Source: an uncultured Vibrio sp. (lineage in GTDB: Bacteria > Pseudomonadota > Gammaproteobacteria > Enterobacterales > Vibrionaceae). Taken from it: a stretch of DNA of 64,000 nucleotides. Location of the stretch: assembly GCF_963675395.1 (NCBI RefSeq), contig NZ_OY776223.1:2108001-2172000 (forward strand), given 5' to 3'. Below, piece after piece: positions 1 through 33,113 of this stretch. The stretch's first letter is position 1. Each line of letters opens with the position of its first letter. The position numbers were made by a program, and so were the translations under genes. Under the pieces are notes generated by a model. It saw only the letters and a list, made by a program, of their open reading frames with translations, had not been told where the DNA came from and did not search any database.

Positions 1-215
1 TCGGTCTCTTTACTGTATTGTTTTTGAATGTCATCACGCAGTTCTTGCATACGCTGATAGGGGGCGTTTGGAATATCACGAGGTTTACGTGGATCCAAAT
101 GCGGTAGTGATAGCACAGCAATTAACACCAACAGCATGGTGAACCAAAAGATGGCAAATATACGTCCATACAAGCTGTTAATGTTTGGTAGTCTGATGCG
201 TGAAAATCGGCTCAT
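1..215 (-). CDS. cpxA: Envelope-stress sensor histidine kinase CpxA, N-terminal part only
   Basis: This is the first 71 codons of CpxA; the rest lies beyond the left edge. The ATG at 215-213 overlaps the cpxR stop by one base, so the two genes are translationally coupled. The protein opens with a short basic cytoplasmic tail (MSRFSRIRLP), then a hydrophobic segment at about residues 18-37, and then enters the periplasmic sensor domain. CpxA is an inner-membrane kinase that phosphorylates CpxR when envelope proteins misfold. The assignment rests on this N-terminus and on the cpxR neighbour; the kinase domains are not visible here. Confidence 0.9.
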   Translation of the reverse strand, partial: MSRFSRIRLPNINSLYGRIFAIFWFTMLLVLIAVLSLPHLDPRKPRDIPNAPYQRMQELRDDIQKQYSKET

Positions 216-29572: not shown

Positions 29573-29648
29573 GCGACACTAGCTCAGTTGGTAGAGCGCA
29601 ACCTTGCCAAGGTTGAGGTCACGAGTTCGAACCTCGTGTGTCGCTCCA
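29573..29648 (+). tRNA. tRNA-Gly (GCC), copy 1
   Basis: 76 bases with an intact cloverleaf: acceptor GCGACAC/GTGTCGC, D-loop GCTCAGTTGGTAGAGC, anticodon GCC in CCTTGCCAAGG, T arm ACGAG-TTCGAAC-CTCGT, encoded CCA. First gene of the array. Confidence 0.97.
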
Positions 29649-29702
29649 CTTTTTCTTAAGTGGGAAGTATAGCTCTCATTGTGCTTAACAATGAAATACG
29701 GA

Positions 29703-29779
<77 letters not shown>

Positions 29780-29811
29780 AATTAAGATTAAACGCACTGG
29801 CGGTTAATCAT

Positions 29812-29887
29812 GCGACACTAGCTCAGTTGGTAGAGCGCAACCTTGCCAAGGTTGAGGTCACGAGTTCGAACCTCGTGTGTCGCTCCA
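29812..29887 (+). tRNA. tRNA-Gly (GCC), copy 2
   Basis: Identical to copy 1 over 76 bases. It begins a 242-base unit (Gly, spacer, fMet, spacer) that is repeated at 30054. Confidence 0.97.
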
Positions 29888-29944
29888 CTTTCTTTTTGAG
29901 TGGACAGTATAAGCGCTCATCATGCTTTGAATGATGATTACGGA

Positions 29945-30021
<77 letters not shown>

Positions 30022-30053
30022 AATTAAGATTAAACGCACTGGCGGTTAATCAT

Positions 30054-30129
30054 GCGACACTAGCTCAGTTGGTAGAGCGCAACCTTGCCAAGGTTGAGGT
30101 CACGAGTTCGAACCTCGTGTGTCGCTCCA
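30054..30129 (+). tRNA. tRNA-Gly (GCC), copy 3
   Basis: Identical in sequence to copy 1; part of the second 242-base unit. Confidence 0.97.
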
Positions 30130-30186
30130 CTTTCTTTTTGAGTGGACAGTATAAGCGCTCATCATGCTTTGAATGATGATTACGGA

Positions 30187-30263
<77 letters not shown>

Positions 30264-30295
30264 AATTAAGATTAAACGCAATAGCGGTTAATCAT

Positions 30296-30371
30296 GCGAC
30301 ACTAGCTCAGTTGGTAGAGCGCAACCTTGCCAAGGTTGAGGTCACGAGTTCGAACCTCGTGTGTCGCTCCA
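30296..30371 (+). tRNA. tRNA-Gly (GCC), copy 4
   Basis: Intact and identical to copy 1. After this copy the spacing changes: the next gene is another tRNA-Gly 35 bases on. Confidence 0.97.
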
Positions 30372-30406
30372 AACATAGCTCTCATTGTGCTTAACAGTGA
30401 CAAAAT

Positions 30407-30482
30407 GCGACACTAGCTCAGTTGGTAGAGCGCAACCTTGCCAAGGTTGAGGTCACGAGTTCGAACCTCGTGTGTCGCTCCA
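30407..30482 (+). tRNA. tRNA-Gly (GCC), copy 5
   Basis: Intact and identical to copy 1; 35-base spacers on each side contain the recurring segment CATTGTGCT. Confidence 0.97.
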
Positions 30483-30517
30483 AATATAGCTTTCATTGTG
30501 CTCAACAGTGACAAAAT

Positions 30518-30608
30518 GCGACACTAGCTCAGTTGGTAGAGCGCAACCTTGCCAAGGTTGAGGTCACGCCTTTTTGTTTACGAATAGGGAACCTCGTGTG
30601 TCGCTCCA
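30518..30608 (+). pseudogene. Broken tRNA-Gly (GCC) with an insertion in the T arm
   Basis: The 5' 51 bases and the 3' end from AACCTCGTG through CCA match the intact copies. In between, the six bases AGTTCG of the T arm are replaced by 21 unrelated bases starting CCTTTTTGTTTACG, so the gene is 15 bases longer (91) and has lost the TTCGAAC T loop and part of the T stem. The acceptor, D and anticodon arms are still intact. It is very unlikely to give a functional tRNA. A sequencing or assembly error is possible but would not easily produce this pattern. Confidence 0.85.
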
Positions 30609-30647
30609 AATATATAGCCTTCATTGTGCTTAACAATGAAATACGGA

Positions 30648-30724
<77 letters not shown>

Positions 30725-30756
30725 AATTAAGATTAAACGCAATAGCGGTTAATCAT

Positions 30757-30832
30757 GCGACACTAGCTCAGTTGGTAGAGCGCAACCTTGCCAAGGTTGA
30801 GGTCACGAGTTCGAACCTCGTGTGTCGCTCCA
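30757..30832 (+). tRNA. tRNA-Gly (GCC), copy 6 (intact)
   Basis: Intact and identical to copy 1; follows fMet copy 4 after a 32-base spacer of the same type as earlier in the array. Confidence 0.97.
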
Positions 30833-30867
30833 AATATAGCTTTCATTGTGCTTAACTGTGACAAAAT

Positions 30868-30943
30868 GCGACACTAGCTCAGTTGGTAGAGCGCAACCTT
30901 GCCAAGGTTGAGGTCACGAGTTCGAACCTCGTGTGTCGCTCCA
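30868..30943 (+). tRNA. tRNA-Gly (GCC), copy 7 (intact)
   Basis: Intact and identical to copy 1; 35-base spacer from the previous tRNA-Gly. Confidence 0.97.
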
Positions 30944-30982
30944 AATATATAGCCTTCATTGTGCTTAACAATGAAATACGGA

Positions 30983-31059
<77 letters not shown>

Positions 31060-31087
31060 AATTCAAGACAGTTTGATTGTTATTTAT

Positions 31088-31146
31088 CATAACCCTCAGG
31101 CCGTCGACGGATGCGCCGCTCGGATAAAATCCGGCTCCCGCAACCA
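31088..31146 (+). pseudogene. Remnant of an initiator tRNA-Met, 3' half with an insertion
   Basis: CATAACCC at 31088 matches the fMet anticodon arm, and the last 20 bases up to CCGGCTCCCGCAACCA match its 3' end in the variant form seen in fMet copy 2. The 5' half is missing. The T arm is interrupted by about 15-20 foreign bases after CCGTCG. It cannot fold as a tRNA. Confidence 0.7.
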
Positions 31147-31316
31147 ATTCACATCGCTCTTTTCATCATGCTGTGAAGCACAACTCCCCTAAAAGAAATT
31201 TTAATCCGCATTATATGATGTCGGACGTTTTCGTTTGTGTTGAAAACATAATATGAATCGGCAGACACAAGAGTGCTCTGGTATGCGAGCGTTTTTGCAA
31301 TCTTTAATTAACAGAC

Positions 31317-31344
31317 TTATCCACATACAGCGTTCTGTGGATAA
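31317..31344. promoter_or_regulatory. Inverted pair of consensus DnaA boxes
   Basis: TTATCCACA at 31317-31325 and TGTGGATAA at 31336-31344 are both exact matches to the strongest DnaA box, in opposite orientation and separated by ten bases. Confidence 0.85.
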
Positions 31345-31590
31345 CTTGGTTGATAAAGTGTTTTTAGCGTGACATTATTTGTTAGTAAACGAAGATCTTT
31401 TCTTTTTTAATTGTTTTAATAGTGACTTGTTTTTATTTTAACTTGCTGTTAAATAAAGAAAAAATGTCTTAATGCCTAGATCTTGGCTGTTGAAATACGA
31501 TCATTACATTGTATTTCTTTGATCCTAGTCATTTACTGAGATTGTGTTTAACTTTTTTTTTCAACCTCTTTTTTATCTAATCTCAAGTTT

Positions 31591-31599
31591 TTTTCCACA
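31591..31599 (+). promoter_or_regulatory. Third DnaA box
   Basis: TTTTCCACA fits the relaxed DnaA consensus TTWTNCACA. It lies 247 bases beyond the inverted pair, about 75 bases from the queG stop. Confidence 0.55.
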
Positions 31600-31672
31600 T
31601 TACAAAATTGAGAACGAGGTCATGAATTGCGTATGTAAAAAGAATTTCAATCTTTTGCATATAGACTACGCT

Positions 31673-32800
31673 TTACGCATCTCTCGGTAAGCCTTTCTCT
31701 ACAATCCTGATTAAACGCTTTCTCTTCGTTTCAGTTGTCTCAGCGTCATTGACCGGAGTTTGGTTGAGCTGCTGCTCCAATGCCCAGTTGATATGTTCAT
31801 CGAGTAAGTCACTTTTTCCCTGACGTGAGGTAAGCGCATCTATGACGCGCTGACTGTAGTCTGCATTGCCCAGTGCGACAGCAATATTACGCAACCATTG
31901 TAAGTGACCAATGCGGCGAATCGCTGAGCCTTCCATATTCTTTAAGAAAGTCGCTTCATCCCAGCCAAACATATCGACTAAATCTGGCGATTGAAAACTA
32001 TCACGACGGTGAAAATCTTCTTGCGCGGTGATATCGGCATACCGGTTCCATGGACACACCAGCTGGCAATCATCACAGCCGTAAATTCGGTTACCCATTG
32101 GTTTTCGAAATTCTTCTGGAATGATGCCATCGAACTCAATGGTCAGGTACGAGATGCAACGTCGCGCATCGACCACTTTGTCTTCTACAATCGCTTGCGT
32201 CGGACATGAGGTAATACAAGCCTTGCATTTTTCACACTGATCGACACTGGGCTGATCAACCGGCAGTGGTAAATCAACCAATAGTTCACCGAGAAAGAAC
32301 CAAGACCCACAGTCTTTATCTAAAATCAGTGAGTGTTTTCCTGTCCAGCCTAACCCGGCTTTCTGTGCGAGTGGACGCTCTAATATAGGGGCGGAATCAA
32401 CAAAAGGACGGTAGCCAAACTTACCGGCTTCTTCTTCGATTAATTTTCCGAGCTTATTGAGCTGCTTTCTTACTAATTTGTGATAGTCACGTCCTAGAGC
32501 ATAGCGACTAATATAGGCGTGGTTTTTATTTGCAAGGTTAGAAGCAAATTGTGCTTCTGGTGGTAGGTAATTCATACGTGCACTGATAACACGTACGGTG
32601 CCCGGTAGTAATTCATGAGGCCTCGCACGCATCATGCCGTGTCGAGCCATCCAGTCCATAGAACCATGATAGCCAGCGTCAAGCCAATGTTGCAGTGCGG
32701 CTTCATGTTCACTTAGGTCAACGTCGCAGATCCCCACTTTTTGAAAGCCGAGTTCTTTTCCCCAAATTTTAATTTTCTGTGCGAGTTGTTCGTAGTTCAT
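31673..32800 (-). CDS. queG: Epoxyqueuosine reductase QueG
   Basis: QueG is a cobalamin-dependent reductase that performs the last step of queuosine synthesis in tRNA. The 375-residue protein contains two [4Fe-4S] ferredoxin motifs (CEKCKACITSCPTQAI and CDDCQLVCPWNR) and the family's N-terminal cobalamin-binding domain; a HEAT-like helical tail follows. ATG 32800 follows GGTGG at seven bases and gives MNYEQLAQKIK; an in-frame GTG at 32809 is less likely. The direction opposite to tsaE is as in E. coli, but the nnr (yjeF) gene usually found upstream is missing. Confidence 0.95.
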   Translation of the reverse strand: MNYEQLAQKIKIWGKELGFQKVGICDVDLSEHEAALQHWLDAGYHGSMDWMARHGMMRARPHELLPGTVRVISARMNYLPPEAQFASNLANKNHAYISRYALGRDYHKLVRKQLNKLGKLIEEEAGKFGYRPFVDSAPILERPLAQKAGLGWTGKHSLILDKDCGSWFFLGELLVDLPLPVDQPSVDQCEKCKACITSCPTQAIVEDKVVDARRCISYLTIEFDGIIPEEFRKPMGNRIYGCDDCQLVCPWNRYADITAQEDFHRRDSFQSPDLVDMFGWDEATFLKNMEGSAIRRIGHLQWLRNIAVALGNADYSQRVIDALTSRQGKSDLLDEHINWALEQQLNQTPVNDAETTETKRKRLIRIVEKGLPRDA

Positions 32801-33113
32801 GGCTACCACCGAGATAAATGGGGGGCGGATCTTAACGGATCTATCGTATTGGTTCTAGCGTAAAGTAGAACTTATAAAAGTACGATAAATAGTGATATTT
32901 ATAATGGAACCTTTTGCAATCTGCTGCTTTCTTATATTGGAGAGCTAAACTCTTATTGCTTACAGTAGAGCGCTGACAAATAAGATACCGTTTTGTGGCT
33001 ACTTTTTTCGCACATATGACATTTGAAAGCTTGTCTCTCAAAAGCAACACAGTTTACTATTCCTGTTCTTTTGATTTTTATATAGTCAACGATCATTAGT
33101 AAGAGAAGCATTA
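32801..33113. other. Divergent intergenic region queG / tsaE
   Basis: 313 bases without a gene. It holds a nested inverted repeat at 32842-32887 (TATCGTA paired with TACGATA outside, GTTCTA paired with TAGAAC inside) close to the queG start. The rest is AT-rich promoter-like sequence. In E. coli this is where nnr lies; no trace of it is visible. Confidence 0.45.

What the first reader, a model, noticed from the sequence alone, without database searches (positions are those of the whole stretch)
31147..31672. Possible Vibrio counterpart of the datA DnaA-titration locus
An AT-rich gap of 526 bases between two converging transcription units holds two perfect inverted DnaA boxes (31317-31325 and 31336-31344), a third TTWTNCACA match (31591-31599) and a one-mismatch box (31543-31551). 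No promoter is needed here. In E. coli the datA locus, which promotes DnaA-ATP hydrolysis, lies beside the glyVXY tRNA genes next to queG (my recollection). Here the same neighbours flank the boxes. An IHF site is part of E. coli datA; I found only a near match (TAA-N5-TTGATA around 31342-31355, one base too long).
Basis: partly seen in the sequence, partly recalled or inferred. Interest (0 to 1): 0.82.

Follow-up and report, generated by a model that had tools for sequence, protein, structure and literature searches.

The report
Vibrio datA, a DnaA-control DNA site
This non-coding stretch looks like the Vibrio version of datA, the E. coli DNA site that helps switch off the protein that starts chromosome copying, and its binding sites are kept across much of the family although the DNA between them has drifted.

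Summary
The gap between the tRNA-Gly/Met array and queG carries three perfect DnaA boxes; none of 2000 shuffles had three. Of 80 fetched Vibrionaceae genomes plus the window, 78 of 81 rows keep box A (TTATCCACA) and box C (TTTTCCACA), same direction, 262-281 bp apart, with at most one mismatch in the two together. A weak box placed like E. coli's essential box 7 precedes box A. Across ten genera boxes A, B, D and C are 92-100% identical, other columns 38%. E. coli datA has the same order and direction (box 7, box 2, IHF site, box 3), the same neighbours, and lies 10% of the chromosome from mnmG, against 6.8-14.1% in 36 Vibrionaceae. Differences: longer arms around the IHF site (65/97 bp in E. 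coli; 118-125/142-156 here) and added inverted boxes B and D. DnaA binding and DnaA-ATP hydrolysis are inferred, not shown. I call it a Vibrionaceae variant of datA; my searches of the held papers found no report of it.

The parts
29573..31059 (+). tRNA-Gly(GCC)/tRNA-Met(CAT) array upstream of the element; possible source of read-through transcription
   Evidence: 12 genes by ARAGORN, 13 Rfam tRNA hits; the role is inferred from E. coli glyVXY (PMC10950094)
31305..31313 (+). box-7-like weak DnaA box TAATTAACA, 12 bp before box A
   Evidence: At most two mismatches at this offset in 53 of 78 rows, 1.8% of background positions; mean pairwise identity 0.69 over 10 genera
31317..31325 (+). DnaA box A, counterpart of E. 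coli datA box 2
   Evidence: TTATCCACA in 76 of 78 anchored rows; identity 0.98 over 10 genera
31336..31344 (-). DnaA box B, inverted; no counterpart beside box 2 in E. coli datA
   Evidence: Perfect TTWTNCACA in 55 and one mismatch in 23 of 78; 18-19 bp from A
31350..31355 (.).
   Evidence: TAA-N5-TTGAT in 48 of 78 rows, looser form in 9
31394..31399 (.). GATCTT block with a GATC (Dam) site
   Evidence: GATCT within A+60..A+115 in 47 of 78 rows; aligned identity only 0.42 over 10 genera
31439..31451 (.). IHF-like site TAACTTGCTGTTA, same strand sense as the E. coli datA IHF site TAACCTATTGATA
   Evidence: At most one mismatch at A+118..126 in 55 of 78, at most two in 75 of 78; shuffle means 1.2 and 9.4; two mismatches in this window; none of 7 rows of g6, g7, g10 has one mismatch or fewer
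31499..31502 (.). GATC site 92 bp before box C
   Evidence: 46 of 78 rows
31521..31524 (.). GATC site 70 bp before box C, in block TTTGATCCTAGTCAT
   Evidence: 46 of 78 rows; block seen
31543..31551 (-). near-box D, TGTGNTTAA (TTAANCACA on the other strand)
   Evidence: At 47-48 bp before C in 71 of 78 rows; identity 0.98 over 10 genera
31591..31599 (+). DnaA box C, counterpart of E. coli datA box 3
   Evidence: TTTTCCACA in 76 of 78 anchored rows; identity 1.00 over 10 genera
31673..32809 (-). queG, the neighbour that marks the locus
   Evidence: TIGR00276, 500.7 bits against a cut-off of 200

Best explanation
The gap holds the Vibrionaceae version of datA. Shown: DnaA boxes and an IHF-like site conserved in order, direction and spacing through most of the family, at the same gene address and a similar relative distance from the origin as E. 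coli datA. Inferred: DnaA-ATP binds the box-7-like/A/B group and the D/C group; IHF bends the DNA between them so that the two groups meet; DnaA-DnaA contacts in this loop stimulate ATP hydrolysis, so that the locus, copied soon after initiation, lowers DnaA-ATP and holds back a second start. Also inferred: read-through from the upstream tRNA array could displace IHF, as reported for E. coli.
For: A and C in 78 of 81 rows; in 42 named Vibrionaceae loci A perfect in 41, B in 42, C in 41. IHF-like site at a fixed offset. Box-7-like site at the E. coli offset. Motif columns A, B, D, C at 0.92-1.00 identity against 0.379 for 237 other columns. Same neighbours as E. coli datA. queG to mnmG 6.8-14.1% of the chromosome in 36 genomes, E. 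coli 10.1%. E. coli datA needs boxes 2, 7 and 3, all in one direction, and an IHF site between boxes 2 and 3 (PMC5742627, PMC5835720, passages). An IHF-alpha gene over its cut-off is present.
Against: The IHF-like site in this window has two mismatches, and in g6, g7 and g10 no row of 7 has one or fewer. Spacing is said to be optimised in E. coli, yet both arms are about 55 bp longer here. Boxes B and D have no E. coli counterpart in place. Three genera of 13 (one row each of g2, g5, g12) lack the arrangement. No binding or activity data. The flank before box A also occurs at E. coli oriC R4, so the flank alone does not prove shared descent with box 2.
Confidence: 0.76

Rival explanations
1. 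A pure titration site: the boxes only store DnaA, without IHF looping or ATP hydrolysis.
For: Boxes are the best-kept part; the IHF-like site is weak in g6, g7, g10 and has two mismatches in this window.
Against: The IHF-like site has a fixed place in 55 of 78 rows with at most one mismatch; fixed distances between distant boxes are not needed for storage.
Confidence: 0.12
2. A DARS-like site that reloads DnaA with ATP, rather than emptying it.
For: A head-to-head pair of boxes (A/B) and an IHF-like site recall DARS (general resemblance).
Against: The head-to-head core boxes of E. coli DARS1 and DARS2 are 5 nt apart, with a third box 12 bp on; here the spacer is 9-10 nt. Gene address and one-direction boxes match datA. 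A separate 5-nt pair exists in 37 of 41 Vibrio genomes.
Confidence: 0.05
3. The A/B inverted repeat acts as an RNA hairpin that attenuates transcription leaving the tRNA array; the match to DnaA boxes would be a by-product. It could also work together with datA, as the glyVXY attenuator does in E. coli.
For: The 9-bp stem stays pairable in 75 of 78 rows: 51 with Watson-Crick pairs only, 24 with one G-U pair.
Against: No terminator-like site was found in 31050-31750. In 3 of 78 rows the stem is broken. It explains neither C, D nor the IHF-like site, nor why the letters stay those of a DnaA box: no fully compensated pair change was seen.
Confidence: 0.04
4. A spare or former replication origin.
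For: AT-rich DNA with DnaA boxes and GATC sites; one perfect match to the E. coli 13-mer consensus GATCTnTTnTTTT in this window (GATCTTTTCTTTT; consensus).
Against: The 13-mer occurs in only 2 of 78 rows. mnmG, with perfect DnaA boxes beside it as at E. coli oriC, lies about 272-274 kb away.
Confidence: 0.02

Closest known systems
E. coli datA (DDAH system)
   Same: Neighbours orn, tRNA-Gly, queG; box 7-like, box 2-like, IHF-like site and box 3-like in one order and direction; about one tenth of the chromosome from the origin
   Different: Arms 118-125 and 142-156 bp instead of 65 and 97; box C reads TTTTCCACA; inverted boxes B and D added; tRNA-Met genes in the upstream array; E. coli box 1 and box 4 not seen in place
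E. coli DARS1 and DARS2
   Same: Clusters of DnaA boxes with a head-to-head pair; DARS2 also uses IHF
   Different: Pair spacer 5 nt and a third box 12 bp on; other gene address; opposite effect on DnaA
Extra-origin RctB sites of V. cholerae (chromosome 2 cluster, and the chromosome 1 site later called crtS)
   Same: Initiator sites outside the origin that adjust initiation; their authors compared them with datA and DARS (PMC3937223, passages)
   Different: They bind RctB and act on chromosome 2, not DnaA acting on chromosome 1

Membership tests
datA | Lies between the tRNA-Gly genes downstream of orn and convergent queG | tested here: met
datA | Two strong boxes (2 and 3) in one direction with an IHF site between them | tested here: met
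   A and C in 78 of 81 rows; IHF-like site at most one mismatch in 55 of 78. The IHF part rests on a consensus match and is weak in this window (two mismatches) and in g6, g7, g10
datA | Weak box 7 beside box 2, same direction | tested here: met
   At A-12, at most two mismatches in 53 of 78, background 1.8%. The identity of E. [quoted passage not shown]
datA | E. coli spacing of the boxes and the IHF site (65 and 97 bp) | tested here: not met
   118-125 and 142-156 bp; constant within Vibrionaceae genera, so I treat it as a variant and not as grounds for exclusion, because spacing is reported as optimised in E. coli, not as the definition
datA | Near the origin, copied early | tested here: met
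   6.8-14.1% of the chromosome from mnmG in 36 chosen genomes, E. coli 10.1%
datA | Binds DnaA and IHF | not testable with these tools
   Needs binding assays or ChIP
datA | Promotes DnaA-ATP hydrolysis; loss gives extra initiations | not testable with these tools
   Needs biochemistry and a deletion
DARS | Core of three boxes: head-to-head pair with a 5-nt spacer, third box 12 bp on | tested here: not met
   Spacer 9-10 nt here; E. coli DARS1 and DARS2 5 nt

The most novel reading that the evidence does not exclude
Vibrionaceae use a rebuilt datA in which two opposed box pairs (A/B and D/C) are brought together by IHF over a loop longer than in E. coli, with the difference between the arms held near three helical turns, so that inactivation of DnaA on chromosome 1 of a two-chromosome bacterium is tied to transcription of the tRNA-Gly and initiator-like tRNA-Met array upstream; datA would then be as old as the common ancestor of Vibrionaceae and the family of E. 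coli.
Probability: 0.35. Interest if true: 0.78.

Novelty: new variant of a known kind. Interest (0 to 1): 0.64.

Why it matters
Vibrio is a main model for coordinating two chromosomes. The papers I could search describe DARS-like sites and crtS there, but in what I saw no datA. A conserved datA would add a likely off-switch for DnaA on chromosome 1. The natural set of arm lengths also gives a ready comparison for asking what geometry DnaA-ATP hydrolysis needs, and would date datA to before the split of Vibrionaceae and E. coli's family.

Tried and rejected
The former is still a partly conserved block.

AACAGAG flank before box A as proof of homology with datA box 2: set aside, since E. coli oriC R4 has GACAGAG at the same place. 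The ACA part also fits a weak box 7.

Hairpin: I first took changes in box B as breaking the stem. A recount showed that 24 of those 27 rows keep a G-U pair, so sequence alone does not exclude an RNA hairpin; I kept it as a rival.

Limits of the statistics: the shuffles are simple letter shuffles, and the species are related, so rows are not independent. The control inside the element (38% identity in other columns) and the control of other offsets (no other IHF-like cluster above 10 of 78) are the better guides.

Rows left out: of 147 family genomes with a QueG match, 80 were fetched; 40 genomes from other families of the order were fetched out of 206 order-wide matches, about 26 of which are the family itself, and families with weak or unlisted matches were not looked at. 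Of the 69 loci, 53 were examined (42 Vibrionaceae; 3 relatives of E. coli; 8 others, none with the arrangement, one of them with only 133 bp of downstream DNA), and 16 distant ones (L055-L070) were not. The 36 genomes were chosen for a known contig length; others with both genes on one contig (for example G011) were left out. The three unanchored rows are not empty: g5 has five perfect boxes in its gap, g12 has TTATCCACA with TTATGCACA 204 bp on, g2 has one box.

Paper searches on datA in other enterics and on datA-like words gave mostly noise, because 'data' is a common word; one on DnaA ChIP-seq with Vibrio listed two papers, neither on Vibrio.

Full report
What is there. The gap 31147-31672 lies between a tRNA-Gly/tRNA-Met array (12 ARAGORN genes; 13 Rfam hits) and queG on the other strand (TIGR00276, 500.7 bits). 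It holds three perfect TTWTNCACA boxes, A (31317, +), B (31336, -) and C (31591, +), and a one-mismatch box D (31543, -). Only five perfect boxes occur in the 64 kb window, against 7.5 expected, so the point is the cluster. Of 2000 letter shuffles of the gap none gave three.

Conservation, named relatives. A scan of named genomes with QueG gave 69 loci. In the 42 Vibrionaceae loci among them (Vibrio, Aliivibrio, Thaumasiovibrio and one unplaced MAG), A is perfect in 41, B in 42, C in 41, and all three in 40. The alignment of these with the window (43 rows) shows conserved blocks separated by freely changing DNA.

QueG was found in 147 of 150 family genomes. I fetched the stretch beyond queG from 80 of them. 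With the window, 78 of 81 rows have A and C in the same direction 262-281 bp apart, 74 without a mismatch in either and 4 with one. The exceptions are one row each of g2, g5 and g12; they have other boxes but not this arrangement. Box B is a perfect box in 55 and a one-mismatch box in 23 of 78. D is found in 73 of 78, in 71 of them 47-48 bp before C and in two at 13 bp. With one row per genus (10 genera), mean pairwise identity is A 0.98, B 0.92, D 0.98, C 1.00, box-7-like 0.69, IHF-like site 0.62, the GATC sites 0.40-0.78 and the GATCTT block 0.42, against 0.379 for 237 other columns. That contrast inside one element argues against shared descent alone for the boxes; for the GATCTT block and one GATC it shows little.

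The IHF-like site. The E. coli datA site reads TAACCTATTGATA on the + strand, 65 bp after box 2 and 97 bp before box 3. In the 78 rows a match to YAANNNNTTGATW with at most one mismatch falls at A+118..126 in 55, and with at most two in 75; letter-shuffled spacers give means of 1.2 (maximum 5) and 9.4 (maximum 16) in 200 rounds each. No other offset cluster exceeds 10 of 78. Against this: in this window the site, TAACTTGCTGTTA at 31439, has two mismatches, and none of the 7 rows of g6, g7 and g10 has one or fewer.

Box 7. Reviews state that E. coli datA needs boxes 2 and 3, the IHF site and a two-misfit box 7 next to box 2, with the essential boxes in one direction (PMC5742627 and PMC5835720, passages). 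I read TTGTAAACA, 12 bp before box 2, as box 7. At the same offset the Vibrionaceae rows have at most two mismatches in 53 of 78, against 1.8% of background positions. So each of the four essential E. coli features has a counterpart in the same order and direction.

Address and position. E. coli: psd, rsgA, orn, glyVXY, queG, nnr, tsaE. Window: orn, tRNA array, element, queG, tsaE. From mnmG, which lies beside the origin in E. coli, to queG the distance is 6.8-14.1% of the chromosome in 36 chosen genomes with both on one contig, and 10.1% in E. coli. Contig length was taken as chromosome length, and gene ends stand in for the origin and the element.

Wider distribution. Of 40 genomes fetched from other families of the order, 11 have the shorter E. 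coli-type pair (161-165 bp): 9 of 9 of f17, the one of f4 and the one of f10. Three named relatives of E. coli (Pluralibacter, Yersinia, Izhakiella) and E. coli itself also have it. In these 15 rows the IHF-like site is at +65 or +66 with at most one mismatch in 8. The other 29 of 40 have no such pair beyond queG, including two f12 and two f22 rows that keep tRNA-Gly genes before queG. One origin in the common ancestor of Vibrionaceae and E. coli's family is the simple reading; I built no tree.

How it differs. In the 55 rows with a good IHF-like match the arms are 118-125 and 142-156 bp, against 65 and 96-97 in E. coli-type rows. The difference between the arms is 30-33 bp in 46 of these 55 rows (31-32 bp in E. 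coli-type rows); in nine of the ten rows with an A-C distance of 262 bp the second arm is 142 bp, about one helical turn shorter. Boxes B and D add inverted sites on both sides. They may build a larger DnaA assembly; that is inference.

Uniqueness in the genome. The pattern TTATCCACA-N5-14-TGTGGATAA in 41 genomes of the genus gives one or two places each, and none for the reversed control. Counting the listed places by hand, the spacers are only 5 nt (37 of 41 genomes) or 9-10 nt (35 of 41). The 9-10 nt kind is this locus in all 8 genomes whose queG position I had (G000, G012, G020, G025, G030, G113, G119, G148). The 5-nt kind resembles the DARS1 and DARS2 cores of E. coli.

Mechanism. Reported for E. 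coli: IHF bends datA after initiation, DnaA-ATP on the boxes oligomerises, ATP is hydrolysed (PMC5742627, passages), and read-through from glyVXY counters IHF binding (PMC10950094, abstract and passages). By anatomy the Vibrio element can do the same; none of these steps is shown here. A gene over the IHF-alpha cut-off is present in the genome, and no terminator-like site was found in 31050-31750, so read-through is possible. One promoter-like match (31350-31378, +) was found against 1.6 expected by chance. The A/B inverted repeat stays pairable as RNA in 75 of 78 rows (51 Watson-Crick, 24 with one G-U), so an attenuating hairpin is not excluded, beside or instead of DnaA binding at that spot; it would not explain C, D or the IHF-like site.

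Literature. Searches for datA with Vibrio, DnaA box, IHF, DARS, DDAH, queG and glyV listed no paper that, in what I saw, describes a Vibrio datA. PMC6090056 (passages) mentions DARS-like sites in V. cholerae and an RctB site likened to datA; PMC8682772 (passages) shows DARS2 in V. cholerae; PMC3937223 (passages) concerns RctB. PMC4585315 (passages and the Introduction) describes datA within E. coli, and PMC12371093 (passages) concerns E. coli and Salmonella. The primary datA papers PMC3549119 and PMC5270471 are not held, so an earlier remark on Vibrio there cannot be excluded.

Verdict. Known in kind, strong in sequence evidence, untested in function: a family-wide variant of datA where I found none described.

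Noticed in passing
L001:1501-1523 (own genome C2:611778-611800): A second head-to-head DnaA-box pair with a 5-nt spacer, like the E. coli DARS1/DARS2 core boxes I-II but without a clear third box; such a 5-nt pair is in 37 of 41 Vibrio genomes. It lies between a UPF0014 gene and a formate/nitrite transporter gene, about 39% of the chromosome from mnmG (my arithmetic). A candidate DARS-like site.
   Followed up: partly
window 30518-30605: A tRNA-Gly copy with an insertion in the T-arm region: Rfam hit of 44 bits, not called by ARAGORN.
   Followed up: no
window about 31101-31148: A 3' fragment that looks like tRNA-Met sequence at the edge of the gap (by eye).
   Followed up: no
window 32810-33113: No nnr between queG and tsaE, unlike E. 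coli.
   Followed up: no
L093-L099, L104, L105, L108: Ten rows of the genus with A-C of 262 bp; they share a second IHF-like match 86 bp before box C.
   Followed up: partly
L124-L126, L143-L147, L149, L151: Ten of twelve g8 rows carry an extra perfect inverted box 55 bp after box A, a possible genus-specific addition.
   Followed up: no
L173-L181, L044-L046, L003: E. coli-type datA rows share a block like GATCACTTG between the IHF-like site and box 3 in most rows (by eye); function unknown.
   Followed up: no
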